A stretch of 64,000 bases of DNA from the NCBI GenBank assembly GCA_019096195.1, contig JAGTXK010000005.1, forward strand, positions 434,001-498,000. The letters are read 5' to 3'. Under the pieces are notes generated by a model. That model did no database searches and was not told where the DNA came from. It saw only the letters and a program-made list of their open reading frames with translations. Positions 45,788 to 62,113 of the stretch are shown here, piece by piece. Position 1 is the stretch's first letter, and the number at the start of each line of letters is the position of its first letter. The DNA is from Boletus sp. NGJ. Lineage: Eukaryota > Basidiomycota > Agaricomycetes > Boletales > Boletaceae. The position numbers and the translations under genes were made by a program.

Positions 45788-46617
45788 GGCTACCATAGGG
45801 TACAGGTAACATCAACATAGCAAACCACGCACATGCGCCAATGGCGCATGTGCGCGTCCACAACAACATCGCAATAAAACATGAACAATCGAGTGTTGAT
45901 AACGACGACTGCGGCATAAACGATGAACAGATGAAAACGAGGAATATGTTGAGTGTAGTTATACAGCGCGCACATGCGCGCATGGCGCATGTGTGTGTGA
46001 AATAAACAACAACAACAAGACACATGTTTCACATTTATACGACAAACACGCCGATGCGCCATGAGAGCATCTGCTCAGTTGATAGGTGTGTCGTACTATA
46101 GACAGCGCGCACATGCGCCATGTGCGCATGTGCGCGGGAAACAAACAACAAACAAGACCTCAGTACGACACACCTATCAACTGAGCAGATGCTCTCATGG
46201 CGCATCGGCGTGTTTGTCGTATAATGTGAAACATGTGTCTTGTTGTTGTTGCTTATTTCACACGCACATGCGCCATGCGCGCATGTGCGCGCTGTATAAC
46301 TACACTCAACATATTCCTCGCTTTCATCTGTTCATCGTTTATGCCGCAGTCGTCGTTATCAACACTCGACAATGGCGTCGTTGTCATCCGCGCCTGGAAT
46401 GCATTGCATTCCTCTTTTCACATACATGTCCTGTGTACATTATTTTAGTACCTTATATTTACACTCTGAAGGGTTCAAATCACCTCTACGCTCACGTATC
46501 ATTCCTCCCGATTTTCACTGAGAACAGTGCTCGTGTGTACTTCTCCCAATACCATTCCGGTACAACTACATATTCAGTGTATTTTCATGGGTCTAATCAT
46601 CGTGGCTACCATAGGGT
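45788..46617. repeat. Large fold-back with 208-bp arms
   Basis: The left arm (45889-46096) and right arm (46162-46369) are near-perfect inverted copies, for example TCGAGTGTTGATAACGACGA against its complement, and AGTACGACACACCTATC in the right arm. The loop is about 65 bp. Within and beside the arms are nested short palindromes built on GCGCACATGCGC/GCATGTGCGC, e.g. CGCACATGCGCCA then TGGCGCATGTGCG at about 45828. A 14-bp direct repeat GGCTACCATAGGGT borders the whole region (45788-45801 and 46604-46617), possibly a target duplication. The open frames read from it are repeat translations, not genes. Confidence 0.85.
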
Positions 46618-46650
46618 TAGGGTTAGGGTTAGGGTTAGGGTTAGGTTAGG
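46613..46650 (+). repeat. Interstitial telomeric repeat (TTAGGG)n
   Basis: About six TTAGGG units, one shortened to TTAGG. They directly abut the 3'-hairpin module of the first ~933-bp unit. The G-rich strand runs left to right, so the distal chromosome end is to the right. Confidence 0.95.
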
Positions 46651-47476
46651 GAGCCGAGCCGAGCCGCGAAGCGGCGAGGCGAGGCGTTACCGGCGGTAAG
46701 GCGATAACGCTGTTGCCTCGGCAAGGGATTACCTTATGGGTCGCACTAGAGATATTGTCTACCGGTCGAGTACCAATTCGCCGGCGGTGTCTAGCCTTAG
46801 CTAGCACCCTAGTGTTTATCTACACTAAAGGCCCGTCATGGGTTTCGACCTTTTGGTCTCATCAGTAGGGGCGCACACCCCTAAACCCACACCACCTTAG
46901 GACATACTAACCGGCTTATGTACACCTCACCATGATTTTGTATTGTCCTGGGCAGACTGGCTCATGAAATTTCCTTTTCAGGACTTATGACCGCCATACT
47001 TAGGAATTTCTCCCACGCAGCCGCTTTCAGACCCCGCAATCACGTGTCATTGGTGCGCCGTGCCGGCTGTTAACCGGCCGCGTTATACCCGGTGAACGCT
47101 TAGTCAGCCGCAGGCCCCGCGGCTCGTTAGTTAACCGGTCACGTGACGTTGGAAATCGACCACGATCGCTACACTAGTAGTAGGGCCGGGTGGCCACATA
47201 ACGCTTACCAATCAAGGCAGTGGCGTTAGGAATTACTACAGTGGGTTAACGCCGCACAGGGACACGCAGTGTTAGGTTAGGGAATGTGCGCCAATAGCAG
47301 GTCACGTGCCAAGTCACGTGATCGCCTTCTCCGTACCGGTTTAATCGGGAGATCTACCGGTTTGAGAGCCATTGGTAACCATCAGCCAAATCGGGTCATA
47401 GAACATGCCCGTGGGTCCGCGCTTAAACGCGCTCCCCAGCCAATTCCGTGCCGGCAAACCAGAGCTATTTTCATAG
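46651..47476 (-). mobile_element. ~933-bp hammerhead unit, copy A, 5'-truncated
   Basis: The same sequence as the units at 52632-56361 but ending after TTTTCATAGATGGG, where TTAGGG repeats take over. In RNA sense (minus strand) this is a 5' truncation with an intact 3' end, which carries the GCCGC-UUC-GCGGC hairpin and CCCTAACC. That is the signature of incomplete reverse transcription followed by telomere capping. It is slightly diverged from the tandem copies (for instance the second cassette lacks three bases near the hammerhead). No protein-coding role is likely. Confidence 0.8.
46839..46889 (-). ncRNA. Type III hammerhead ribozyme (unit A)
   Basis: Minus strand, 5' to 3': stem III strand UGGGU; cleavage site near UU; stem I UAGGGG-UGUGCG-CCCCUA; conserved core CUGAUGA; stem II GACC-AAAA-GGUC; GAAA; stem III strand CCCA. 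All invariant core bases are present. Stem III is only four to six pairs, as in hammerheads of Penelope-like elements and retrozymes, which often act as dimers. The cleavage triplet would be GUU or, with one-base slippage, UUA. Confidence 0.85.
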
Positions 47477-47630
47477 ATGGGTTAGGGTTAGGTTTAGGTT
47501 AGGGGGGAGCGAGCACTCGAGCGAAGCGAGAGTGCGAGCGGGGATAGTGTGGGATGGGGGGCCAGATAGGTAATAGGCTGAGGGCGACCAGCTCTTAGGG
47601 TTAGGTTAGGGTTAGGGTTAGGGGGGCCGA
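47477..47630. repeat. Telomeric tracts bracketing a ~90-bp PLE 3'-end fragment
   Basis: TTAGGG repeats at about 47477-47504 and 47596-47630. Between them, 47505-47595 holds GAGCACTCGAGCGAAGCGAG, the GTGTGGGATGGGGGGCCAG linker, and the ribozyme 3' half (GATAGGTAATAGGCTGAGGG), stopping in the ribozyme's stem III. In RNA sense this is an extreme 5'-truncated copy of a Penelope-like element 3' end, capped by telomere. Confidence 0.8.
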
Positions 47631-47676
47631 GCTGCGAGCGAAGCGAGCAGCGAGGGGGATATGTGTAGGATGGGGG

Positions 47677-47753
47677 GCCAGATAGGTAATAGGCGTTGGA
47701 GCCTCCGCTTCCAACACCACCTATTTCGTCCGGGGACTCATCAGACCTCTGGC
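47677..47753 (-). ncRNA. Type I hammerhead ribozyme of PLE 1
   Basis: Minus strand: stem I strand GCCAGAGGU; core CUGAUGA; stem II GUCC-CC-GGAC; GAAA; stem III UAGG...GUUGGA closed by a nine-base loop and returning UCCAAC.CCUA; cleavage after AUU; then stem I return strand ACC-UA-UCUGGC. All conserved bases are present, stem I pairs over nine positions with a two-base bulge, and stem III is long, so a monomer should be able to fold. Predicted cleavage yields an RNA starting ACCUAUCUGGC. Confidence 0.88.
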
Positions 47754-48888
47754 GAATAGTAGAAAAGAATTTCTTGATTCTTACCTGTATTTATACGGGA
47801 AAGAATCGCGCACGGACCATTAATAATAACGTGAGAAGCGGAGATAGACGCAACGGAGATTAAACCGGATCTTGCCGGTAACACTCGGATCTTTCCGGTT
47901 GCGCTTCTACGTGAGAGTTCTCTCACGGTCGACGGTAATTAAATTGCCGAGACCGGGTGGCGTAGTAACCGAGACGGGCCGACGAGGACTTCGGGCCGGT
48001 GCTTCTTCGGCTATCTCCGGGATCGGTCTAGATCACTTACGTAATATTATCTCACCCCTTGCCGGGGGTGTGCCACCGTTAGGTTCCTAAGTTAACCGGT
48101 TAGGGTTAGGGTTAGGGTTAGCACGTTAGGGTTAGCGGTTAAAAGTTAGGTTAACGCTAAATGCCCTTATGAGATTACGGGTAATGATCTAGGCTATAAC
48201 ACCGATCACGCACGTTAGGGTAAGGTTATTGGGGCGGTCTGGCATGTATTGAGCCAGTCTTGGTTGTATTACACAGTCTGGTACACCAAGATACCAATAT
48301 CTCGCTAGCTGATCGTTTATCTTCAGCTTGATACTCCTTACCAATACTAATGGTACGGTTTAACGTCACTAAACGTGATAAAAATGCCGCAGGTGTGCGG
48401 GGTACTCAGAGCTAAGCTTATGGTGAGCTTCGCTATCGGTACGCGCCGTCTGTGGCCGGACTCTTCGTCCGCTCTCCCTCGAAGTGGAGATTGGATTCCT
48501 ACTTGGTGTTTCACCTTTCGGACCCCCTGGTTACCCAGGATTCCAGCCGGGCACTGAATAGGAGAGGCTCCCTTGGGGCCGTCAAACACTCCTTTCATTC
48601 CCACACACCCTGATCTTTCCGACAGAGTATCTCTCCGGTTTTCCTATACACGAAGAGTACGCGATCGCATCGGTGCTAGTGAAGCTCAACTTCAAGCGGT
48701 AGTTTCATACTCGCGTACGAGCCGGTTCTCCCGCACAAACTTAGCCTGTTGCCGGAGCAGACAGGTACCCTCCCCATTATAGGTCGGGCTCGCCAGGTGG
48801 CCGAAGCGACCCAGCTGTGAGTTGAGGCCCTACGGTAGAGGGACTCCATCTGTATCATTGCCCCTTCACGGGTGATGCAATGTTGCAC

Positions 48889-51800
48889 TCAAGGCTTTGA
48901 GACTCGTAAGAGTGTCTCTGCCATCTGATCAGCGGTATCCTCCCACATGGGAGATACAGACCTCCGTTGTGCATTATAGTCGGCGTCTTCTGTGTCCACC
49001 ACTTTTCCTGATGGTAGACGCCGCCATTTTGCTGGCAAAACGGGTTCAGGGGGACCGGTGTGACCAGGTTGGTCACCGGGATGGACAGAATCCGTTTCCC
49101 CGGTCTCTTTGTCTGCATATCGGTCCAACACTATCTTTTTCCAAAGACTGGTTAGATCGAATAGTTGGGTGGTGCGTTTCCGCGACACCAACATTCGAGA
49201 GTCTAGGATATCCGTACGCCGGATGTCCGGGATCTCAACTAGCGAACCATCCGCACGCACACTTTCCAGAAGAAAGCGGGGTTTCAAGTCCACATCATGG
49301 TTGTAATCAACCGGTTCCGGGGGGAATTCAAAATTGAATTCCTTACGCTCGGCTTTATACAGCCAAGATCGCATATATCCTAGGATAGTGTCTCCTAGTT
49401 TAGTGACGGAGAATAGATCCCACGCCGTGTTGTAACTGGTTTTGAGGACCAGGACTGCGCTTGTCGCGCCTTCGGTTCTATTTGTGTGGCGGTTCTGCCA
49501 TCTTTCCTGGAGTTTAGACCGTCTCCAGTACAACAACAGCGACTCATCGTAACCACGCGACACGTAGATGGTTACCAACCAATCCAGTGCATCCAGGTAG
49601 TTTTCGTAGTTACTACTGAGCGTGGCGAGTCGACTCATTTCACCGTAGAACGTACCACGCTTGACGTCTATCGGGTGAGCTGAGACATAGGGTATTCTCT
49701 GGTGGAGCGATTTCGCTTTCTGGTATGGTCTATGTTGCAGTTTACCTCTATTATCTTTATAGAGCAACATATCCAGAAAGGGTTGGGCATTGCCCACGTC
49801 CCACGTTATGACGCAGTGATCGATTACCACTTTCTCGCGCATAATGGCTAGCGCTTCCTGAGGGCTACTAGCGTACACAATGCCGAGGCAATCGTCGATG
49901 TACCTACCATAGTAGGCGATACGGGGTTCATTCAGAATACCATCACGTTTCTCGCAGAACCACCCATACAAATTGGCGAGGTCTGGTGAATCTGCAACGC
50001 CCATTGCTAGGCCGTTGAGTTGCTGGTATGTCTGCCCGTCGAACTGCGTTAACAACTCCGTGTTACCGACTCTTAACGCTTCCTGAAAGAATAACAGGAA
50101 GGTCTCAATTGTGAGCCCGTTCCAGTGCGCATTCTCATCCCCTTCATTAGCATATGTCCATTCAACAAACATGCTGAATATGCGGTCGAGACATAGCTCC
50201 AAAGGAATGTTGGGGTAATACGCGACTACATCGCCGGTGACGATGTAGAACTGGGCACCCGGGATAAGATGGAGTTGACTTAATTTTATCGCTAAGTCTT
50301 TGCTGCCATGGATGACAGTTAGCGCCTCTGCAACTAGAGGTTTAAGCATTTTGCTGCAAAATTTAGCAGCCGGATTCTGGATCGCGCTGTGACAGGGTAA
50401 GATAGGCCTGAATTTGACCGGTAGTTTATGGATCTTTGGGATTCCATAAAAGCGCGGTATATGGTGGTCTGCCGTTGGAGCGGTAACAAGACTCTTTAGG
50501 TATTCGTCTAGCGAACCATATTTCCAGCAGTATATTTCCGACCGCTGAGAGAGAAGGATCATCTCGGTACATTTTTTATCGAGGATCCGTTTAGCTTCTA
50601 GATTATCGAGGCGTTTGTATTCGCGCTCGTTAGATAAACATGCTAAGGTATTATCTATGATCCAGGTCCGCTCTGACACCGCTAAGCCGAGGTTCTTGTC
50701 GGTAGGCGTGATAACATAGTCGTTATCCAACATGAACTTGCGTAACTCGTTTACCTTAGGACCGAGCGGTTTGAATGTGTCGTCCGTAAGGCCATCAAGC
50801 GGGGCATTGGCAGTGACGTTGTGGACGTATGCACGCCCTCGCTTGAGAGCGAGTTCGCAATAAAACGGTAGTACTGGCGGGTCCGCGGCACTAGGCGGGG
50901 ACACGTCGTAATCGGGATCATAGGTTTTATTATTGTTTCCCTCTAATGTAAATTTAACCTTCCACCTGAGGCGTCTTACGAAGTCCAGGTAAGCGTCAGT
51001 AATCAGCTGCGTCTGACGAGGCTGGTGAAACATATGTTTCATTCCAATCCCAAGGTCTAGCTCTAATTCCCGCGGAATAGAGACTCCGGGGCCAGTGTGG
51101 ATTCGTGATCTAAATCGGCCCGCCTCTATAAACTTAAGGGGCGTATGTCTGATCACGGCTTCAATGGCCTGTACTGGGTGGGCGAAGTCGATTATCTCAT
51201 CTGGGAGTGTCCAATACTCTGGATACACGTAGGACGCCATTTTGGCGTCGAGACATTTATTACAAATGGCCGCGATCGTATAATGAGTAGCTACATCATC
51301 ATTTGTGTAACTACTTTCGCCGTGATCGTCCATGCCTGAGACTCCTCTCCTGCTCCCGTATGAGCTTCCTACCCTCGTACAGCAACCTTTCCCTTGCCGA
51401 CATGCTTTTGACCCATTTCTTGCGCGCGGGGGGTACGGGGCGGCTGCGTAGATCGAGCCTTTCCGCCGCGGTTGCTCTTCCCTCCTCTTCCCGCTGTTTG
51501 AGGACGACGCGGGCAACGACCTCCGGTTGTGATACGCGCTGACTTGTGCGCGCTTTTGCGGGGGGGATGTTGTTGATGACCCTTGGTGGAAGGGCCGGAG
51601 GGGCGAAGTGGCTACAACATCCCGTGAGTTATGTTTACCGGTACTGAAACGACAACAACTCACGTTTGCGTCTTTCGGCGCAAGCCGCTTGACTGCCGCG
51701 TTGACTGCGCGGTCCACTGCCGATTGAATGGCCGATCCAGAGGGACCGGTCGCATCCTGCATCTCGACGTCAGCGGTCTCCTGTACACGCTTCTTCGCGG

Positions 51801-52584
51801 CTCGTTTCACTTCCGCGGCAACCGAAGAGGATATGATTATCGCTCTGATTCGGTCAGCGTATATCACCCAGTCCTGCAACACCTGACGACACAGGGTGAA
51901 GGGGACGGTGGACTGGACCCACCTGCGAATGCTGATGTTGCCATCAGCATCCTCTACGGTTTCGGGGATCCGTAGAGTGCCCTTGAGCCTGGAGTAATGC
52001 TCTTGGACCACAGGTTGGACTTGGGCCAGTAGCTGGTCCGGCTGTGAGGCGCGTTCCAACGACGCGATCTCCTTGCGTTTAGCGTCCAAGTAGGCCGCAA
52101 GGAGCTGCTTCTGGTACGCGAGGTGACCAGAAGCGATGGTCGACCTAAAGGTGCGACCTTCCTCACTATCCTCCCACCCCTTAGTCAGGACGACCGAGGG
52201 GGCTTGGTTGTTACACCAGGGAGGAAAAGTCCCGGCCGCAGAGTGGGCCTCCCACTTGGCTAAGTGGGACCGCGCTGCCTCCAGATGCGAGCACCTAGAG
52301 GCGACCTGCTCAAGCAGGGGGCGGAGGACAGTCCGGAACTGGGAGGGGACCATAGCGATCACCTCCCCGACCGAGTTGGCCGCCTGTAAAGCCGAGTGAC
52401 GTACGGTGGCGGCATCAGAGACGACGTACGTGTCATTATCCTCCTCGACGACGTTGAACGCGTCGATGCCAAAGACAGGGGCCTGGTGTAAAGGCGACAA
52501 GGCGCGGAGCATGTTCGCTGTGGAGGTACCAGCAGCGGCGTTGGACTGGTTGTTGGACATGGTTGACAGAGGTGAGGTACACAA
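48889..52584 (-). CDS. PLE 1 reverse transcriptase polyprotein, 1231 codons
   Basis: One uninterrupted frame. Residues ~1-330 form a helical N-terminal part (LQAANSVGEVIAMVPSQFR, LLAAYLDAKRKEIASLERAS) without a known domain. Residues ~330-440 are low complexity. From ~445 the Penelope RT begins: TLPDEIIDFAHPVQAIEAVI; a fingers region with TPTDKNLGLAVSERTWI; the diagnostic GIPKIHKLPVKFRPILPC; VTGDVVAYYPNIPLE (catalytic D); LNGLAMGVADSPDLANLYG; and YYGRYIDDCLGIVYAS (YIDD). A thumb and a ~200-residue C-terminal region follow with no GIY-YIG cysteines, histidine or YVG motif. The product would copy element RNA at chromosome ends. A 52-nt segment at 51663-51612 has intron signals (GTGAGT..TAG). 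Removing it shifts to a frame with an RGG-like basic tail, stop at 51369. Alternative start at MSNNQSN (52560). Confidence 0.9.
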   Translation of the reverse strand: MCTSPLSTMSNNQSNAAAGTSTANMLRALSPLHQAPVFGIDAFNVVEEDNDTYVVSDAATVRHSALQAANSVGEVIAMVPSQFRTVLRPLLEQVASRCSHLEAARSHLAKWEAHSAAGTFPPWCNNQAPSVVLTKGWEDSEEGRTFRSTIASGHLAYQKQLLAAYLDAKRKEIASLERASQPDQLLAQVQPVVQEHYSRLKGTLRIPETVEDADGNISIRRWVQSTVPFTLCRQVLQDWVIYADRIRAIIISSSVAAEVKRAAKKRVQETADVEMQDATGPSGSAIQSAVDRAVNAAVKRLAPKDANVSCCRFSTGKHNSRDVVATSPLRPFHQGSSTTSPPQKRAQVSAYHNRRSLPASSSNSGKRREEQPRRKGSIYAAAPYPPRARNGSKACRQGKGCCTRVGSSYGSRRGVSGMDDHGESSYTNDDVATHYTIAAICNKCLDAKMASYVYPEYWTLPDEIIDFAHPVQAIEAVIRHTPLKFIEAGRFRSRIHTGPGVSIPRELELDLGIGMKHMFHQPRQTQLITDAYLDFVRRLRWKVKFTLEGNNNKTYDPDYDVSPPSAADPPVLPFYCELALKRGRAYVHNVTANAPLDGLTDDTFKPLGPKVNELRKFMLDNDYVITPTDKNLGLAVSERTWIIDNTLACLSNEREYKRLDNLEAKRILDKKCTEMILLSQRSEIYCWKYGSLDEYLKSLVTAPTADHHIPRFYGIPKIHKLPVKFRPILPCHSAIQNPAAKFCSKMLKPLVAEALTVIHGSKDLAIKLSQLHLIPGAQFYIVTGDVVAYYPNIPLELCLDRIFSMFVEWTYANEGDENAHWNGLTIETFLLFFQEALRVGNTELLTQFDGQTYQQLNGLAMGVADSPDLANLYGWFCEKRDGILNEPRIAYYGRYIDDCLGIVYASSPQEALAIMREKVVIDHCVITWDVGNAQPFLDMLLYKDNRGKLQHRPYQKAKSLHQRIPYVSAHPIDVKRGTFYGEMSRLATLSSNYENYLDALDWLVTIYVSRGYDESLLLYWRRSKLQERWQNRHTNRTEGATSAVLVLKTSYNTAWDLFSVTKLGDTILGYMRSWLYKAERKEFNFEFPPEPVDYNHDVDLKPRFLLESVRADGSLVEIPDIRRTDILDSRMLVSRKRTTQLFDLTSLWKKIVLDRYADKETGETDSVHPGDQPGHTGPPEPVLPAKWRRLPSGKVVDTEDADYNAQRRSVSPMWEDTADQMAETLLRVSKP

Positions 52585-52611
52585 AAGTATGGGTTAGGGG
52601 GGCCGAGCTGC

Positions 52612-52631
52612 AGCTTAGGGTTAGGGTTAGG
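52612..52631 (+). repeat. Short telomeric tract distal to PLE 1
   Basis: About three TTAGGG units follow the truncated 5' hairpin of PLE 1 and precede the next ~933-bp unit. This is consistent with telomerase capping after the element was added. Confidence 0.9.
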
Positions 52632-52822
52632 GAGCCGAGCCGAGCCGCGAAGCGGCGAGGCGAGGCGTTACCGGCGGTAAGGCGATAACGCTGTTGCCTC
52701 GGCAAGGGATTACCTTTTTGGGTCGCACTAGAGATATTGTCTACCGGTCGTGTAACCAATTCGCCGGCGGTGTCTAGCCTTAGCTACCACCCTAGTGCTT
52801 ATCTACACTAAAGGCCCGATCA

Positions 52823-52873
52823 TGGGTTTCGACCTTTTGGTCTCATCAGTAGGGGCGCACACCCCTAAACCCA
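52823..52873 (-). ncRNA. Type III hammerhead ribozyme (unit B)
   Basis: Identical core to unit A: CUGAUGA, stem II GACC-AAAA-GGUC, GAAA, stem I UAGGGG/CCCCUA, short stem III UGGG/CCCA on the minus strand. Confidence 0.85.
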
Positions 52874-53755
52874 CACCACCTTAGGACATACTAACCGGCT
52901 TATGTACACCTCACCATGATTTTGTATTGTCCTGGGCAGACTGGCTCATGAAATTTCCTTTTCAGGACTTATGACCGCCATACTAAGGAATTTCTCCCAC
53001 GCAGCCGCTTTCAGACCCCGCAATCACGTGTCATTGGTGTGCCGTGCCGGCTGTTAACCGGCCGCGTTATACCCGGTGAACGCTTAGTCAGCCGCAGCCC
53101 CCGCGGCTCGTTAGTTAACCGGTCACGTGACGTTGGAAATCGACCACGATCGCTACACTAGTAGTAGGGCCGGGTGGCCACATAACGCGTACCAGTCAAG
53201 GCAGTGGCGTTAGGAATTACTACAGTGGGTTAACGCCGCACAGGGACACGCAGTGTTAGGTTAGGGAATGTGCGCCAATAGCAGGTCACGTGCCAAGTCA
53301 CGTGATCGCCTTCGCCGTGCCGGTTTAACCGGGCGATCTACCGGTTTGAGAGCCATTGGTAACCATCAGCCAAATCGGGTCATAGAACATGCCCGTGGGT
53401 CCGCGCTTAAACGCGCTCCCCAGCCAATTCCGCGCCGGCAAACCAGAGCTATTTTCATAGATGGGTCCGATCACGTTAGGCGGCAATGGCTTAGCCTGCG
53501 TTAGTCAGACGCTTAGCTAACTTGAGTTTCCCATGCAGTGTAGTCCCGTAATTTAAGGGTTAGGGAGCCGAGCCGAGCCGCGAAGCGGCGAGGCGAGGCG
53601 TTACCGGCGGTAAGGCGATAACGCTGTTGCCTCGGCAAGGGATTACCTTTTTGGGTCGCACTAGAGATATTGTCTACCGGTCGTGTAACCAATTCGCCGG
53701 CGGTGTCTAGCCTTAGCTACCACCCTAGTGCTTATCTACACTAAAGGCCCGATCA

Positions 53756-53806
53756 TGGGTTTCGACCTTTTGGTCTCATCAGTAGGGGCGCACACCCCTA
53801 AACCCA
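53756..53806 (-). ncRNA. Type III hammerhead ribozyme (unit C)
   Basis: Same sequence as in unit B, one repeat period (933 bp) further right. Confidence 0.85.
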
Positions 53807-54686
53807 CACCACCTTAGGACATACTAACCGGCTTATGTACACCTCACCATGATTTTGTATTGTCCTGGGCAGACTGGCTCATGAAATTTCCTTTTCAGGA
53901 CTTATGACCGCCATACTAAGGAATTTCTCCCACGCAGCCGCTTTCAGACCCCGCAATCACGTGTCATTGGTGTGCCGTGCCGGCTGTTAACCGGCCGCGT
54001 TATACCCGGTGAACGCTTAGTCAGCCGCAGCCCCCGCGGCTCGTTAGTTAACCGGTCACGTGACGTTGGAAATCGACCACGATCGCTACACTAGTAGTAG
54101 GGCCGGGTGGCCACATAACGCGTACCAGTCAAGGCAGTGGCGTTAGGAATTACTACAGTGGGTTAACGCCGCACAGGGACACGCAGTGTTAGGTTAGGGA
54201 ATGTGCGCCAATAGCAGGTCACGTGCCAAGTCACGTGATCGCCTTCGCCGTGCCGGTTTAACCGGGCGATCTACCGGTTTGAGAGCCATTGGTAACCATC
54301 AGCCAAATCGGGTCATAGAACATGCCCGTGGGTCCGCGCTTAAACGCGCTCCCCAGCCAATTCCGCGCCGGCAAACCAGAGCTATTTTCATAGATGGGTC
54401 CGATCACGTTAGGCGGCAATGGCTTAGCTTGCGTTAGTCAGACGCTTAGCTAACTTGAGTTTCCCATGCAGTGTAGTCCCGTAATTTAAGGGTTAGGGAG
54501 CCGAGCCGAGCCGCGAAGCGGCGAGGCGAGGCGTTACCGGCGGTAAGGCGATAACGCTGTTGCCTCGGCAAGGGATTACCTTTTTGGGTCACACTAGAGA
54601 TATTGTCTACCGGTCGTTAACCAAACGCCGGCGGTGTCTAGCCTTAGCTACCACCCTAGTGCTTATCTACACTAAAGGCCCGATCA

Positions 54687-54737
54687 TGGGTTTCGACCTT
54701 TTGGTCTCATCAGTAGGGGCGCACACCCCTAAACCCA
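54687..54737 (-). ncRNA. Type III hammerhead ribozyme (unit D)
   Basis: Same ribozyme sequence. Notably it is untouched although the rest of unit D has many transitions. Confidence 0.85.
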
Positions 54738-55619
54738 CACCACCTTAGGACATACTAACCGGCTTATGTACACCTCACCATGATTTTGTATTGTCCTGGG
54801 CAGACTGGCTCATGAAATTTCCTTTTCAGGACTTATGACCGCCATACTAAGGAATTTCTCCCACGCAGCCGCTTTCAGACCCCGCAATCACGTGTCATTG
54901 GTGTGCCGTGCCGGCTATTAACCGACCGCGTTATACCCGGTGAACGCTTAGTCAGCCGCAACCCCCGCGGCTCGTTAGTTAACCGGTCACGTGACATTGG
55001 AAATTGACCACGATCGCTACACTAGTAGTAGGGCCGGGTGGCCACATAACGCGTACCAGTCAAGGCAGTGGCGTTAGGAATTACTACAGTGGGTTAACGC
55101 CGCACAAGGATACGCAGTGTTAGGTTAGGGAATGTGCGCCAATAGCAGGTCACGTGCCAAGTCACGTGATCGCCTTCGCCGTGCCGGTTTAACCAGGCGA
55201 TCTACCGGTTTGAGAGCCATTGGTAACCATCAGCCAAATCGGGTCATAGAACATGCCCGTGGGTCCGCGCTTAAACGCGCTCCCCAGCCAATTCCGCGCC
55301 GGCAAACCAGAGCTATTTTCATAGATGGGTCCGATCACGTTAGGCGGCAATGGCTTAGCTTGCGTTAGTCAGACGCTTAGCTAACTTGAGTTTCCCATGC
55401 AGTGTAGTCCCGTAATTTAAGGGTTAGGGAGCCGAGCCGAGCCGCGAAGCGGCGAGGCGAGGCGTTACCGGCGGTAAGGCGATAACGCTGTTGCCTCGGC
55501 AAGGGATTACCTTTTTGGGTCGCACTAGAGATATTGTCTACCGGTCGTGTAACCAATTCGCCGGCGGTGTCTAGCCTTAGCTACCACCCTAGTGCTTATC
55601 TACACTAAAGGCCCGATCA

Positions 55620-55670
55620 TGGGTTTCGACCTTTTGGTCTCATCAGTAGGGGCGCACACCCCTAAACCCA
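55620..55670 (-). ncRNA. Type III hammerhead ribozyme (unit E)
   Basis: Same sequence as in unit B, in the last complete unit of the array. Confidence 0.85.
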
Positions 55671-56455
55671 CACCACCTTAGGACATACTAACCGGCTTAT
55701 GTACACCTCACCATGATTTTGTATTGTCCTGGGCAGACTGGCTCATGAAATTTCCTTTTCAGGACTTATGACCGCCATACTAAGGAATTTCTCCCACGCA
55801 GCCGCTTTCAGACCCCGCAATCACGTGTCATTGGTGTGCCGTGCCGGCTGTTAACCGGCCGCGTTATACCCGGTGAACGCTTAGTCAGCCGCAGCCCCCG
55901 CGGCTCGTTAGTTAACCGGTCACGTGACGTTGGAAATCGACCACGATCGCTACACTAGTAGTAGGGCCGGGTGGCCACATAACGCGTACCAGTCAAGGCA
56001 GTGGCGTTAGGAATTACTACAGTGGGTTAACGCCGCACAGGGACACGCAGTGTTAGGTTAGGGAATGTGCGCCAATAGCAGGTCACGTGCCAAGTCACGT
56101 GATCGCCTTCGCCGTGCCGGTTTAACCGGGCGATCTACCGGTTTGAGAGCCATTGGTAACCATCAGCCAAATCGGGTCATAGAACATGCCCGTGGGTCCG
56201 CGCTTAAACGCGCTCCCCAGCCAATTCCGCGCCGGCAAACCAGAGCTATTTTCATAGATGGGTCCGATCACGTTAGGCGGCAATGGCTTAGCTTGCGTTA
56301 GTCAGACGCTTAGCTAACTTGAGTTTCCCATGCAGTGTAGTCCCGTAATTTAAGGGTTAGGGAGCCGAGCCGAGCCGCGAAGCGGCGAGGCGAGGCGTTA
56401 CCGGCGGTAAGGCGATAACGCTGTTGCCTCGGCAAGGGATTACCTTTTTGGGTCG

Positions 56456-56745
56456 GCAGCGGGCCGAGCTTGTCGACCGGTGCGTTAGCCAGTGCGCGCG
56501 GCGGATATGTCTGGGATGGGGGGCCAGTTAGCTACCACCCTAGTGCGTGGGGCGACCGCTTCCAAGGCCCGATCCTGGGTTTCGTCCGGTTGGTCTCATC
56601 AGACCTCGGGGCGCACACCCCTGAAACCCACACCATTCCTTAGGTCCTACTAACCTGGCTTTATACGGGACAGCCTCGCGCACGGGCCATTAATAAGATC
56701 GTGAGTTGGTCCTAGGGTCAGCCTGGCTCTTAGCCGTTAGCTGCG
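56456..56745. repeat. Mosaic segment blending the 933-bp unit with PLE end sequence
   Basis: Reads as an alternation, a few bases at a time, of the 933-bp unit (TTAGCTACCACCCTAGTGC, GGCGCACACCCCT, AACCCACACCA) and the PLE end region (ATGGGGGGCCAG, TTTCGTCCGG, CTCATCAGACCTC, GCGCACGGGCCATTAATAA). A degenerate hammerhead-like core (CTGATGAGACC on the minus strand) is present but the stems no longer pair. It may be an assembly consensus of two collapsed repeats or a true recombinant. Confidence 0.6.
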
Positions 56746-56825
56746 TTAGGGTTAGGGGGGCGAGGGGTTAGGGGGGCGAGCACTCGAGCGAAGCGAGAGT
56801 GCGAGCGGGGTAGTGTGGGATGGTA

Positions 56826-56900
56826 GCCAGATAGGTAATAGGCTGAGGGCGACCAGCACTCAACCACCTATTTCGTCCGGGGACTCATCAGACCTCTGGC
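56826..56900 (-). ncRNA. Type I hammerhead ribozyme of PLE 2
   Basis: The same core as in PLE 1: stem I GCCAGAGGU, CUGAUGA, stem II GUCC-CC-GGAC, GAAA, AUU cleavage site, return strand ACCUAUCUGGC. Stem III differs in sequence (GGUUGAG, loop, CUCAGCC) yet still pairs. Covariation between the two elements supports a working structure. Confidence 0.87.
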
Positions 56901-58039
56901 GGAATAGTGAAAAGAATTTCTTGATTACGTACCCTGTATTTATAGGGAACGAATCGTGCACGGACCATCAGTGAAACGTGGGAATAAGCGGAGATTACGC
57001 AGCGGAAATTAAACCGGATCTTGCCGGTTGTCACTCGGATCTTTCCGGTTGCGCTTCTGCGTGAGAGTTCTCTCACGGCCGCGGTAATTAAATAGCCGAG
57101 CCGGGTGGCGCAGATAGCCGAGTCGGGCCGTTAGGTCTCTCGGTCCGATGCTTCTTCGGCAATCTCCGGGATCGGTCTAGACCACTTACGTAATTTATTC
57201 TCACCCCTTGCCGGGGGTGTGCCACCGTTAGGTTCCTAAGTTAACCGGTTAGGGTTAGGGTTAGGGTTAGCACGTTAGGGTTAGCGGTTAATAAGTTAGG
57301 TTAACGCTAAAGACCCAATGAGTTACGCGTATGGGCTAGGCTATAGCACCGATCCTCACGTTAGGGTAAGGTTATTCAGGCGTTCTGGCATGTATTGAGC
57401 CAGTCTTCAGCCCGTATCTAGAACATGTCGGGCTAAGATCACGCACTGCCTGCGTTCGCACTTTCGATTCGAGGGAGTGCTTCCCACCTTACCATACTGG
57501 TGGTACGATTAACGTCACTAAAACGAATAAACACTGCAAAGCGTTTCGAGTTACTCAGGTCTAAAGCTATCGTAAGCTTGCACATACGTTACACGCCGTC
57601 TGTGGCCGGACTCTTCGTCCGTTATCCCCCCGAAGGTGGACATTGGATTCCTACTGAGTATTGCACTGTTCGGACCCCCCGGTTACCCGGGATTCCAGCC
57701 AGGCGCTGTATGGAGAGGCTTCGTTGAGGCTCTCAGACAACCCTTTCATTCTCTACTTCGCCGACCATCCGGACTAGAGTTTCTCTCCGGTTTTCCTATA
57801 CACCAAGAGTACGCAATCGCGTCGGTGATAGTGAGGCTCAACGTCGGGCGGTAGTTTCTTACCGTGTACGAGCCAGTTCTCCCGCACAAACTTAGCCTGT
57901 TGCCGGAGCAAACAGGTACCCTTCCCATTATAGGTCGGGCTCGCCGAGGGGCCGAGGCGCCCCAGCTGTGAGTTGAAGCTCTGCGGTAGAGGGACTCCAT
58001 CAGTATCATGGCCCCTTCTCGGGTGATACGACGGTGCAC

Positions 58040-61000
58040 TCAAGGCTTTGAGACTCGTAAGAGTGTCTCTGCCATCTGGTCAGCAGTGTCCCCCACAAAC
58101 ATGGGGGAAGCAGATCTCCGCTGTACATTGAGGTCGTCACTTTCTAGATCAATCACTTTTCCTGATTGCAAGCGACGCCACTTTGCTGGTAAAGCGGGGT
58201 CAGGAGGGCCGGTATGACCTGGTTGGTCATCTGGATGGATGGAATCCAGTTCACCGGTCCCTTTATCTGCTAGACGTTCCAACACGATCTTTTTCCAAAG
58301 ATTTGTGAGGTCGAATAGTTGCGTAGTGCGTTTCCGCGATACGATTATTCGACGGTCTAAGATATCCGTACGCCGGAGGTCAGGGACCTCAGTCGGTGTA
58401 CCATTAGCACGCACAGACTCTATACAGAGCCGGGGCTTCCGGTCCACGTCATCCGTGTAGCCAACTGGCTCCGGGGGGAATTCAATATTGAATTCCTTAC
58501 GCTCGGCTTTATAAAGCCAAGATCGCATATATCCTAGGATCGTGTCTCCTAGTTTAGTGACGGAGAATAGCTCCCATGCCGTGTTGTACTCGGTTTTGAG
58601 CACCAGGGCCGCGCTTGCCGCTGCGACATCGGATTTGGTCGTTAAGCGATTGTTCCATCGCTCCTGGAGTTTATTGCGTCTCCAAGTACAACAGCAGCGC
58701 CTCGTCATATCCACGCATCACATAGATGGAAACCAACCAATCTAGCGCATCGAGGTAGTTTTCGAACGTACTACTCAGCGTGGCGAGACGACTCATTTCA
58801 CCGTAGAATGTACCTCGTTTGACATCTATCGGGTGACCTGAGACATAGGGGATTCTCTGGTGGAGCGACTTGGCCTTCTGGTATGGTCTATGCTGCAATT
58901 TCCCTCTATCATCCTTATAGAGCAGCATATCCAGGAAAGGCTGGGCATTGCCGACGTCCCACGTTATGACGCAATGATCGATTTTTACATTCTCGGTGCA
59001 TAATGGCTAGCGCTTCCTGAGGGCTGCTTGCGTACACTATGCCGAGACAATCGTCGATATACCTACCGTAGTAGGCTATCCGTGGGTGATTGAGAATTCC
59101 ATCACGTTTTTCGCAGAACCACCCATACAAATTAGCGAGGTCCGGTGAATCTGCGACGCCCATTGCTAGGCCGTTTAGTTGTTGGAATATCTCCCCATCG
59201 AATTGCGTCAACAGCTCCGTGTTACCAACCCGTAAACAGTCGTTAAAGAACATAACAAAGTTATGGACCGACAACCCGTTCCAATGCTCATTTTCGTCCC
59301 CTTCATTCTGGTAGATCCATTCGACAAACATGCCGAAGACTCTATCCAAGCACAAATCCAAAGGAATGTTAGGGTAATAAGCAACTACATCGCCAGTGAC
59401 GATGTAGAATTTGGCACCCGGGATCAGGTGGAGCTGGCTCAATTTTATCGCCAAATCTTTGCTGCCATGGATGACAGTTAGCGCCTCATCAACTAGAGGT
59501 TTGAGCATTTTACTACAGAATTTTGCGGCCGGATTCTGGATCGCGCTATGACAGGGTAGGATAGGCCTGAATTTGACCGGTAGTTTATGGATCTTTGGGA
59601 TTCCATAAAAGCGCGGAATATGGTGATCTGCCGTAGGGGCGGTAACAAGATGCTTTAAGTATTCATCTAATGAACCATATTTCCAGCAATATATGTCCGA
59701 CCGCTGAGAGAGTAAGATCATCTCGTTACATTTTTTATCGAGGATCTGTTTCGCAGCAGCGTTGTCGAGGCGTTTGTATTCGCGCTCGTTTGACAAACAT
59801 GCGAGGGTGTTTTCTATAATCCAGGTCCGCTCTGACACCGCTAAGCCGAGGTTCTTGTCGGTAGGAGTGATCACATAGTCGTGATCCAACATGAACTTGC
59901 GAAGTTCGTTTACCTTGGGACCGAGCGGTTTGAATGTGCCGTCGACAAGGCCATCAAGCGGGGCATTGGCAGTGATGTTGTGGACATATGCACGCCCTCG
60001 CTTGAGCGCGAGCTCGCAGTAAAACGGTAATACGGGTGGATCTGCCTTACTGGGCGGAGACACGTCGTAATCAGGATCATAGGTAGTATTGGTTTCTCCC
60101 TCTAAAATAAATTTGACCTTCCACCTGAATCTTCTGACAAAGTCCAGGTACGCGTCAGTGATCAGTTGTGTCTGACGTGGTTGGTGAAACATGTGTTTCA
60201 TGCCGATACCAAGGTCGAGTTCTAATTCCCGCGGAATAGAAACTCCTGGGCCAGTGTGTATGCGTGATTTGAATCGGCCCGCCTCTATAAACTTAAGAGG
60301 CACATGTCGAATCACGCACGCAATGGCCTGCAGAGGCGTAGCGTAGTCAATTATCTCATCTGGTAATGTCCAATACTTAGGGTATTCGTAGTCACACATA
60401 AGTGAGTCAAGACACGCGTTACAGATTGCATGGTAGGTAGGAATGTCCAGCATGGCATCTACACTACTTTCTACGGAGTCCTTTTCCCAACTCCTTCTTT
60501 TGCTCCCGGATGAGCTTTCTACCCTCTGCGAGCAGCCTTTCCTTTGGCCCCATGTGCTTGGCCTTTCGGTGGGGGGCCGGAGGGGGTGCGGGCCTGCGCC
60601 TGAGATCGAGGCGCTCCTCCGCGGTTGCTCTTCCCTCCTCTTCCCGTTGCTTGAGGACGACGCGGGATACGACCTCCGGTTGAAATACGCGCTGACTTGT
60701 GCGCGCTCTTGCGGGGGGGATGCTGTTGATGACCCTGGGGACCAGGGCCGGAGGGACGAAGTGGCTTCAACAGCAGTTAGTGTCTGTTTACCGGTACAGA
60801 AACGACAGACACTTACACCACCGACTTTCGGCGTAAGCCGCTTGACCGCCGCGTTGACTGCACGGTCCACTGCCGATTGAATGGACGGTCCGGCTGGACC
60901 GGTCGCATCCTGCATATCAACGTCAGCGGCCTCCTGAGTACGCTTCTTCGCGGCTCGTTTCACTTCCGCGGCTACCGTAGACGATACGATGATCGCCTTA

Positions 61001-61737
61001 ATCCGGTCAGCGTACACGACCCAGTCCTGTAGCACCTGGCGACAGATGGTGAACGGGATGGTCGACTGGACCCACCGTCTGATGTGAATGTTTCCATCCG
61101 CATCCTCTACCGTTTCAGGGATACGGAGAGTTCCCTTGAGCCTCTTGTAGTGCTCTTGGACGACGGGGTGGACGATGTCCAGCAGCTGCGCTGGTTGTGA
61201 GGCGCGCTCGAGGGCGGCGACCTCCTTGCGCTTAGCATCCACGTAAGCGGCAAGGAGTTGCTTCTGGTACGCGAGGTGACCAGAAGCCAGAGTCGAACGA
61301 AAGGTTCGACCCTCCTCACTTTCCTCCCATCCCTTGGTCAGAACGACCGTGGGTACCTGGTTGCTACACCAGGTAGGGAAGGTGCTGGCCGCAACATGGG
61401 CCTCCCACTTGCTAAGGTGGGACCGCGCCGCCTCGAGCTGGGTAAACCTCGAGGCGATTTGCTCGAGGAGCGGGCGGAGCACAGCGCGGAACTGGGCGGG
61501 GACCATGGCGATCACCTCGCCCACCGAATTGGCAGCCTGTAGGGCAGAGTGACGAGCCTGCGCAGCATCAGTGACGACGTACTGGTCCTGATCCTCCTGG
61601 ACCACTTCGAAAGCGTCGACGCCGAAGACAGGCGCCTGGTGGAGTGGCGACAGAGCGCGAAGGAGGTTGGCTGTGGAGGTACCAGCAGCGGCGTTGGACT
61701 GGGACATGGTTGATAGCGATGGATATGAGGTACACAA
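58040..61737 (-). pseudogene. PLE 2 reverse transcriptase ORF, interrupted
   Basis: Homologous along its length to the PLE 1 polyprotein. N-terminal MSQSNAAAGTSTANLLRALS, shared helical region, RT motifs TPTDKNLGLAVSERTWI, GIPKIHKLPVKFRPILP, VTGDVVAYYPNIPLD and YYGRYIDDCLGIVYAS, and the same C-terminal region (LGDTILGYMRSWLYKAERKE) ending LLRVSKP at 58040. The frame is open for about 940 codons and then broken about twice in the C-terminal third, so it is probably inactive, unless these are sequencing errors. The 52-nt intron-like segment (60816-60765, GTAAGT..AAG with a CTAAC branch-like site) is at the same position as in PLE 1. The alternative basic frame after it (stop at 60519) is also conserved. 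No GIY-YIG domain. Confidence 0.85.
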
Positions 61738-61801
61738 GTATGGTTAGGGGGGCGAGCACTCGAGCGAAGCGAGAGTGCGAGCGGGGTAGTGTGGGATGGT
61801 A

Positions 61802-61853
61802 GCCAGATAGGTAATAGGCTGAGGGCGACCAGCACTCAACCACCCTGTATTTA
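61802..61853 (-). other. Core-deleted hammerhead remnant in the 5' end repeat
   Basis: Carries GCCAGATAGGTAATAGGCTG and the stem III strand but jumps directly to CTGTATTTATAGGG. The CUGAUGA, stem II and GAAA parts present at 56826-56900 are absent. This copy cannot self-cleave. Confidence 0.8.
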
Positions 61854-61952
61854 TAGGGAACGAATCGTGCACGGACCATCAGTGAAACGTGGGAATAAGC
61901 GGAGATTACGCAGCGGAAATTAAACCGGATCTTGCCGGTTGTCACTCGGATC

Positions 61953-62113
61953 TTAGGGTTAGGTTTAGGGTTAGGTTAGGTTAGGGTTAGGGTTAGGGTT
62001 AGGGTTAGGGTTAGGGTTAGGGTTAGGGTTAGGTTAGGGTTAGGGTTAGGGTTAGGGTTAGGGTTAGGGTTAGGGTTTTAGGGTTAGGGTTAGGGTTAGT
62101 TTAGGGTTAGGTT
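61953..62113 (+). repeat. Telomeric tract, ~26 TTAGGG units with variants
   Basis: The longest telomeric run in the window, with a few TTAGG, TTTAGGG and TTTTAGGG variants. The G-rich strand points right, so it caps everything to its left. Its abrupt right edge continues straight into retroelement sequence. Confidence 0.97.

What the first reader, a model, noticed from the sequence alone, without database searches (positions are those of the whole stretch)
52632..56455. Tandem subtelomeric ~933-bp units, each carrying a complete type III hammerhead ribozyme
Seen: four near-identical units and a partial fifth with constant period. Each has CUGAUGA, a GACC/GGUC stem II, GAAA and closed stem I on the minus strand, plus a 3' hairpin and CCCTAACC tail. 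Known: hammerheads occur in Penelope-like elements and plant retrozymes, and tandem monomers with short stem III process into unit-length RNA. Inference: transcripts of this array could be cut into ~933-nt RNAs, circularised, and copied at chromosome ends by the PLE reverse transcriptase next door. I am not aware of a described non-coding, telomere-borne hammerhead satellite of this kind in fungi.
Basis: partly seen in the sequence, partly recalled or inferred. Interest (0 to 1): 0.92.

Follow-up and report, generated by a model that had tools for sequence, protein, structure and literature searches.

The report
Ribozyme-bearing mobile unit at telomeres
At chromosome ends of a fungus, a short non-coding mobile unit with its own RNA-cutting ribozyme motif seems to be copied onto telomeres by the reverse transcriptase of neighbouring Penelope-like elements, whose 3' RNA hairpin it imitates.

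Summary
Confirmed: four head-to-tail units (933/933/931/933 bp, window 52627-56356) plus 103 bp of a fifth; each complete unit has a full type III hammerhead on the minus strand. It is more than a satellite: of 37 copies in the loci I held, 33 start at the same 3' end and 32 are shorter than full length, as expected from telomere-primed reverse transcription. The unit encodes no long protein but ends in the same hairpin architecture (GCUUCGC apex, UC/UC loops, complementary stems of differing sequence) as the Penelope-like elements (PLEs) beside it; no other similarity to them was found. Best read as a non-autonomous telomeric retroelement borrowing the PLE enzyme. The hammerhead is conserved well beyond its flanks. 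The PLEs carry a different, type I hammerhead that overlaps a probable intron. Not supported: one circular RNA copied round and round (unit 3 is of another subfamily) or ribozyme-cut linear templates (0 of 37 copies end at the site). Circles remain possible. The sequence just distal of the array (56460-56749) looks like an assembly blend. Telomeric PLEs, hammerheads and retrozymes are known; this combination in a fungus I did not find in ten searches of one open-access library. No RNA was tested.

The parts
52627..53559 (-). unit 1 (933 bp; RNA sense is the minus strand, RNA 3' end at 52627)
53560..54492 (-). unit 2 (933 bp)
54493..55423 (-). unit 3 (931 bp), a different subfamily from units 1, 2 and 4
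55424..56356 (-). unit 4 (933 bp), identical to unit 2
56357..56459 (-). start of a fifth unit, identical for 103 bp, does not reach the hammerhead position
   Evidence: family D10; blend follows
52821..52875 (-). type III hammerhead, unit 1
   Evidence: Rfam 43.0 bits
53754..53808 (-). type III hammerhead, unit 2; predicted cut GUU^UAGG between 53801 and 53800
   Evidence: cut site assigned by me from the Rfam alignment
54685..54739 (-). type III hammerhead, unit 3
55618..55672 (-). type III hammerhead, unit 4
53564..53606 (-). 3'-terminal hairpin of the unit (unit 2 shown), next to CCCTAA
46646..47482 (-). separate 5'-truncated unit copy (840 of 933) between telomeric repeats, with hammerhead at 46837-46891
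47616..52588 (-). Penelope-like element PLE-1, 5' end joined to about 20 nt of another copy's 3' end
48889..52584 (-). PLE-1 open frame, 1231 aa, reverse transcriptase motifs (GDVVAYYPNIP, MGVADSPDLANLYG, YIDD)
   Evidence: motifs recognised from memory; no relevant Pfam hit
47677..47753 (-). type I hammerhead of PLE-1
   Evidence: isolated minimum-energy fold differs
48100..48117 (-). internal telomeric tract in the PLE-1 3' region
56766..61741 (-). Penelope-like element PLE-2 (frame interrupted)
56826..56900 (-). type I hammerhead of PLE-2
   Evidence: isolated minimum-energy fold differs
56868..56932 (-). inferred 65-nt intron (GTACGT...AAATAG) overlapping the 5' part of the PLE-2 hammerhead
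   Evidence: absent from copy 61742-61954
57249..57266 (-). internal telomeric tract in PLE-2 where related copies often end
61742..61954 (-). partial PLE-2 3' copy joined to the PLE-2 5' end, lacking the inferred intron
61953..62111 (+). TTAGGG array
56460..56749 (.). fine-grained blend of unit and PLE sequence, probably an assembly consensus artefact

Best explanation
The unit is a non-autonomous, telomere-targeted retroelement that parasitises the Penelope-like elements beside it. Its RNA (minus strand) ends in a hairpin of the PLE type followed by CCCTAA. The PLE reverse transcriptase recognises the hairpin, the CCCTAA pairs with the exposed TTAGGG overhang, and copying runs outward, usually stopping early. 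Head-to-tail arrays arise because full-length templates carry the junction to a neighbouring copy (multi-copy read-through RNA, or possibly circles), with later recombination mixing subfamilies. The hammerhead is kept by selection, most likely to trim multimeric transcripts, but the templates that were copied were uncut (or re-joined) at its site. Shown from sequence: the anatomy, 3' anchoring, truncation, hairpin sharing, conservation, junctions. Inferred: use of the PLE enzyme, selection on cleavage. Not shown: any RNA or any cleavage.
For: 33 of 37 copies in the held loci start at unit position 1-2 and 32 of 37 are shorter than full length (not all independent: L026/L027 and two 99-nt copies have the same flanks, two are blends). 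17 of 31 short copies with sequence beyond them have a telomeric string within 30 nt of the truncation (one of these is a blend) and 16 of 33 have further telomeric repeats just before the unit's own TTAGGG. 10 of 13 contigs with recent copies have them within 6.5 kb of a contig end, expected fraction 0.056 (distance chosen after seeing the data). 52 of 57 unit and PLE 3' ends parse into an apex, complementary stems and at least one 2x2 loop, UC/UC in nearly all (one TT/TC); middle stems differ (GCC, GCACUC, GCUGC, GCACAGC, ACACUUUU). Swap control on distinct ends: 13 of 17 pass with their own 3' side, 10 of 140 with that of another stem class. Apart from the hairpin no similarity of unit and PLE in the 3' ~290 nt compared. 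5 of 5 unit 5' ends found in the genome run into another unit through one junction; 3 of 3 complete PLE 5' ends in the held loci run into another PLE copy. Hammerhead: 0 of 55 variable sites among recent copies against 23 of 149 beside it, 10 of 215 against 136 of 737 in four older copies. 25 of 37 copies cross the cut site, 0 of 37 end at it.
Against: No transcript or protein data. The PLE frames give no relevant Pfam match and one weak reverse-transcriptase match in NCBIfam, E 0.0036, far under its cut-off; the only PDB profile hit is an unrelated repeat protein; the structure model failed (mean pLDDT 30.8). The unit hairpin alone is only weakly more stable than shuffles (z -1.53). In older copies the hairpin has changed at least as much as its neighbourhood (for example 7 of 39 against 17 of 149 in C111), as dead copies would, but it gives no sign of constraint there. 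14 of 31 short copies have no telomeric string at the truncation. In the assembly this stack is not at a contig end (28.8 kb away) and sequence beside the array is a blend. Conservation of the hammerhead stretch could serve something else; 14 of 255 overlapping windows are as invariant.
Confidence: 0.72

Rival explanations
1. Retrozyme-like cycle: array transcripts are cut by the hammerhead, circularised, and the circle is reverse-transcribed at the telomere, sometimes more than once round.
For: Complete type III hammerhead in every complete array unit; unit size 933 within the 600-1000 nt given for plant retrozyme circles (PMC6155905, passages); all 5 unit 5' ends found in the genome continue into another unit; no copy ends at the cut site, as expected if it is re-joined.
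Against: Unit 3 shares 14 of 14 covered alleles with the C46 copy, so one circle did not make the array unless unit 3 was converted later. For the PLE, copy 61742-61954 lacks the inferred intron while the 3' region of the same element keeps it, which fits a linear multi-copy transcript better than a circle. In the anole PLE, ribozyme mutants insert normally and unprocessed RNA is the dominant template in vitro (PMC11167929, main text).
Confidence: 0.22
2. Plain subtelomeric satellite spread by unequal exchange and end recombination, with the hammerhead a relic.
For: Units 2 and 4 are identical while unit 3 between them differs, and array phase is perfect: recombination has probably acted on the array.
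Against: 33 of 37 copies share one end and 32 of 37 are short at varying points, about half with telomeric repeats at the break; hammerhead unusually conserved.
Confidence: 0.06
3. The array, or its copy number, is an assembly artefact.
For: Blended sequence directly distal of the array and a similar blend on C118; head-to-head stacks within contigs C20 and C8 and near the end of C50; stack not at a contig end and the last 1467 bases of the contig show no telomeric repeats.
Against: Unit 3 has its own haplotype and an independent unit-unit junction lies on C20. The retroelement reading does not depend on the number of units here. Reads were not available.
Confidence: 0.08

Closest known systems
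[quoted passage not shown] Gladyshev & Arkhipova 2007, not held)
   Same: Transposition at chromosome ends, telomeric repeats added to truncated 5' ends, no GIY-YIG (description read in PMC3846280 passages). The neighbour element fits this. Penelope-like elements at chromosome ends are also reported for the mushroom Agaricus bisporus (PMC7473861, passages).
   Different: The 933-bp unit has no enzyme; a non-coding partner sharing only the 3' hairpin was not in what I read. The name Coprina is recalled.
Terminons (Arkhipova et al. 2017, not held; seen through passages of PMC6431247 and PMC12477314)
   Same: Hammerhead near a 3' end with telomere-complementary repeats; telomeric chains of 5'-truncated copies.
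   Different: Terminons are giant coding elements with the hammerhead directly beside the telomeric repeats; here the unit is small and non-coding, its hammerhead lies 195-249 nt inside, and a different hairpin sits at the end.
[quoted passage not shown] animal non-LTR retrozymes with type I)
   Same: Small, non-coding, hammerhead in tandem copies; PLEs/Terminons proposed as the borrowed machinery in animals (PMC7761336 passages).
   Different: Telomere-specific 3' end, fungal host, type III with 933 bp and GC 0.549; circular RNA unproven.
MoTeR elements of the rice blast fungus (MoTeR1 named in passages of PMC10088271; the non-autonomous MoTeR2 is recalled)
   Same: Fungal telomere-targeted autonomous and non-autonomous pair.
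   Different: Recalled: another (non-LTR) class, no hammerhead.
Five Hammerhead_3 hits of 55 nt in Pleurotus ostreatus (PMC5040776, passages)
   Same: Same Rfam family and hit length as the unit's ribozyme, in a basidiomycete.
   Different: In the passages read they are listed as ncRNAs only, not tied to telomeres or Penelope elements. Whether they are the same unit I could not test.

Membership tests
Endonuclease-deficient telomeric PLE (for PLE-1/PLE-2) | Penelope-type reverse transcriptase | tested here: inconclusive
   Motifs visible in the translation, recognised from memory; no relevant Pfam hit (11, 17), weak NCBIfam RT hit (67), structure model unusable (78)
Endonuclease-deficient telomeric PLE (for PLE-1/PLE-2) | no GIY-YIG domain | tested here: met
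   no such Pfam match at E up to 10 in the whole PLE-1 frame; PLE-2 only up to its frame break
Endonuclease-deficient telomeric PLE (for PLE-1/PLE-2) | common 3' end beside telomeric repeats, truncated 5' ends | tested here: met
   39 3'-anchored copies listed with many different end points; some end only because my loci or contigs end
PLE | tandem copies / pseudo-LTR arrangement | tested here: met
   3 of 3 complete 5' ends in the held loci run into another copy
PLE | hammerhead in the terminal region | tested here: met
   28 of 29 non-unit cores in the held loci have the full type I strands, the 29th is the blend; the isolated minimum-energy folds are not the hammerhead
Retrozyme (for the unit) | non-coding, non-autonomous | tested here: met
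   longest ATG frame 78 aa, on the antisense strand; none of 60 aa or more on the sense strand
Retrozyme (for the unit) | hammerheads in tandem flanking one unit | tested here: met
   window array; on C20 the second copy, 124 nt, is too short to hold a second hammerhead
Retrozyme (for the unit) | circular RNA intermediate | not testable with these tools
   no RNA data
Plant LTR retrozyme | LTRs with PBS, PPT and 4-bp target duplication | not tested
   telomeric attachment makes it unlikely
Animal non-LTR retrozyme | type I hammerhead, 150-450 bp, low GC | tested here: not met
   type III, 933 bp, GC 0.549
Terminon | hammerhead immediately beside telomeric repeats, giant coding element | tested here: not met
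   unit hammerhead at positions 195-249, no long frame
Hammerhead ribozyme type III | core plus three stems with stem I closed | tested here: met
   Rfam 43.0 bits, below cut-off 48.5; fold z -3.09
Hammerhead ribozyme type III | self-cleavage | not testable with these tools
   needs a bench assay

The most novel reading that the evidence does not exclude
A telomeric retrozyme: hammerhead-made circles of the unit are primed at the telomere by the PLE enzyme and copied more than once round, so that a ribozyme parasite adds tandem DNA to chromosome ends, while the PLE splices its own hammerhead out of its 5' leader to protect its message.
Probability: 0.15. Interest if true: 0.88.

Novelty: new variant of a known kind. 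Interest (0 to 1): 0.62.

Why it matters
What the hammerheads of Penelope-like elements do is open (the passages read call their role auxiliary, or unknown). Here one genome holds PLEs with a type I hammerhead overlapping a probable intron and a tiny passenger with a type III hammerhead, both with one 3' hairpin design and one landing site. That gives a natural comparison and a small, testable RNA: 933 nt, a defined hairpin with ready-made compensatory variants, a defined primer (TTAGGG).

Tried and rejected
One rolling-circle event for the whole array: rejected unless followed by conversion, unit 3 is of another subfamily. Hammerhead-cut linear templates: rejected, 0 of 37 unit copies end at positions 237-245 and 0 of 39 PLE copies end at positions 71-73. 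Unit as an internally deleted PLE: not supported, no similarity outside the hairpin in the 3' regions compared. The 'variant' hammerhead at 56580: dropped as a blend; a similar blend on L035 gives the one copy ending at position 246. My first structure string for the PLE hammerhead was off by one column and is void; the corrected one gives 108 of 108 cells paired but no variation, so no covariation evidence. The isolated PLE hammerhead segments have another minimum-energy fold. A count of pairs was not run on the hairpin alignment A2, which is not aligned by structure; the swap control stands in. The structure prediction was unusable, so no fold search was run. Viral contigs hold no exact match to a 26-base piece of the unit's ribozyme. 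A tyrosinase search did not help to name the fungus. Rows dropped before counts: of 37 copies, 33 were aligned (left out: L027, the L035 blend, a 26-nt copy and one of two 99-nt copies with the same flanks); of these 33, 24 entered the recent-copy diversity (u1 and u4 dropped as near-duplicates of u2, plus seven old or blended ones). Of the seven, the blend u5 and two without hammerhead coverage (C10a, C10c) did not enter the old-copy test, and the hairpin was left out of its comparison region.

Literature: absence from print rests only, all in one open-access library; key originals (Arkhipova 2017, Cervera 2014, Lunse 2017, Gladyshev 2007) were not held and may contain parts of this.
Full report
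What is there. The window lies at C107:434001-498000 of a 32.8 Mb, 141-contig genome. Hydrophobin matches (21) point to a filamentous fungus; I could not name it. Four complete units follow head to tail at 52627-56356, lengths 933, 933, 931, 933, then 103 bp of a fifth. Another, 5'-truncated copy sits at 46646-47482. On the minus strand each complete unit holds a full type III hammerhead: closed stem I (UAGGGG/CCCCUA), stem II GACC/GGUC, stem III UGUGGGU/ACCCAUG, predicted cut GUU^UAGG. Rfam gives 43.0 bits, below its curated 48.5, so a default scan is silent. The core occurs 55 times in the genome and the reversed control never.

How it spreads. A genome search gave 41 matches, a lower bound. 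In the loci I held there are 37 copies: 33 start at position 1-2, the RNA 3' end at TTAGGG; 5 are complete; 32 end at many different points. 17 of 31 short copies with sequence beyond them have a telomeric string within 30 nt of the break (one is a blend), 14 do not. Ten of 13 contigs with recent copies carry them within 6.5 kb of a contig end (distance chosen afterwards); the exceptions are C107 (this window), C20 and C8. This pattern is the mark of reverse transcription primed at chromosome ends, as described for endonuclease-deficient PLEs (PMC3846280, passages). Two such PLEs flank the array: 47616-52588 with a 1231-aa frame and 56766-61741 with an interrupted one. Their enzyme type rests on motifs I recognised; profile searches were silent, irrelevant or weak and the structure model failed.

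The shared hairpin. The array holds no ATG frame above 78 aa, and those are antisense. Apart from the last 50 nt, the unit's 3' region resembles those of the PLEs no more than shuffled sequence does (scores 20 and 20 against shuffled means of 20.2 and 21.0). But its 3' end has the PLE architecture: GCUUCGC apex, 2x2 loops that are UC/UC, stems, then CCCTAA. Of 57 3' ends, 52 parse fully this way (two of these with a single loop, one with TT/TC) and 5 only in part; the middle stems have five different sequences. Exchanging 3' halves between stem classes passes the same test in 10 of 140 combinations, own halves in 13 of 17 distinct ends. Agreement of shape with change of letters points to recognition of an RNA structure by one enzyme, so I read the unit as a passenger of the PLE. 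Against this: the unit hairpin alone has only z -1.53, and in older copies it has decayed as much as its surroundings.

The array. All 5 occurrences of the unit's 5' terminal sequence found in the genome run into another unit with the same junction, and 3 of 3 complete PLE 5' ends in the held loci run into another PLE copy. Templates therefore reached across a copy boundary, as in the PLE pseudo-LTR layout (PMC11167929). Unit 3 shares 14 of 14 covered alleles that separate the C46 copy from unit 2 (a few of these alleles are also common elsewhere), so the array is composite, by separate copying or by conversion. None of 37 unit copies ends at the hammerhead site and 25 cross it: templates were uncut or re-joined.

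Is the ribozyme selected? Among recent copies 0 of 55 hammerhead sites vary against 23 of 149 beside it (Fisher p 0.0007); in four older copies 10 of 215 differ against 136 of 737 (p 8e-8). Sites and copies are not independent. In a window ranking 14 of 255 overlapping windows, these included, show no variation: extreme, not unique.

The PLE hammerhead. Rfam saw it hardly at all (19 bits), but 28 of 29 non-unit cores in my loci have complete type I strands: GCCAGAGGU / ACCUAUCUGGC stem I, GUCC/GGAC stem II, AUAGG/CCUAU stem III closed by a variable stretch, cut AUU^ACCU about 71 nt from the 3' end. These stems never vary, so they give no covariation, and the isolated segments have another minimum-energy fold. 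The 5' part lies between TATAAATACAG and a GTRMG donor (27 of 28 contexts) and GAAATAG. One copy, 61742-61954, lacks exactly 65 nt, 56868-56932, with GT..AG ends; the junction occurs once in the genome. I read it as a spliced leader; a deletion at 3-nt microhomology is the alternative.

Doubts. The stretch 56460-56749, and one on C118, read as column-by-column mixtures of unit and PLE (78 PLE-only columns against 10 in a control copy), most likely assembly consensus errors. The stack is followed by non-telomeric DNA and the last 1467 bases of C107 show no telomeric repeats. Copy number of the array therefore needs reads.

Known or new. Telomeric PLEs with hammerheads (Terminons), type I retrozymes of animals and type III retrozymes of plants are known, and a review already proposes PLEs/Terminons as carriers of animal retrozymes (PMC7761336, passages). 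PLEs at chromosome ends are reported for a mushroom (PMC7473861, passages), and Hammerhead_3 has been listed in Pleurotus without such context in the passages read. A non-coding, telomere-landing, type III unit in a fungus that shares the PLE's 3' hairpin was not found in ten searches. I file it as a new variant of a known kind.

Noticed in passing
window 57249-57266 and 48100-48117; loci L032, L033, L034, L035, L036, L037, L038, L039, L047: PLEs carry an internal TTAGGG tract about 490 nt from the 3' end; 9 of 39 3'-anchored PLE copies end inside this 18-nt tract and another element follows, as if a built-in telomere lets cDNA stop and prime again (a tenth, L044, ends there at a contig end; L039 and L047 may be duplicates).
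   Followed up: partly
window 56868-56932 and 61742-61954: A probable 65-nt intron with canonical ends overlaps the PLE type I hammerhead; one intron-less copy exists, so splicing would remove the ribozyme.
   Followed up: partly
window 56460-56749; L035 5822-6372: Fine-grained unit/PLE mixtures, probably assembly consensus artefacts.
   Followed up: yes
C20:141754-152328, C50:376620-386843, C8:89347-90634: Telomeric element stacks meet head to head within contigs (C20, C8) or near a contig end (C50), like telomere-telomere joins or assembly fold-backs.
   Followed up: no
window 46035-46224: A perfect inverted repeat (63-nt arms) belongs to a recurring subtelomeric block; a 34-nt piece of it occurs 11 times in the held loci, and two unit copies (on C1 and C8) are preceded by the same point of it.
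   Followed up: no
window 45765 and L031, L038, L039, L042: The string GGGATCTAATCTAA occurs 8 times in the held loci, several times directly after truncated element copies; perhaps another telomeric element.
   Followed up: no
each unit, positions 399, 498, 661, 673 (unit 2): Four CACGTG motifs against about 0.2 expected at equal base frequencies.
   Followed up: no
window 39852-41849, minus: 665-aa frame with three MMR_HSR1/AIG1 GTPase stretches.
   Followed up: no
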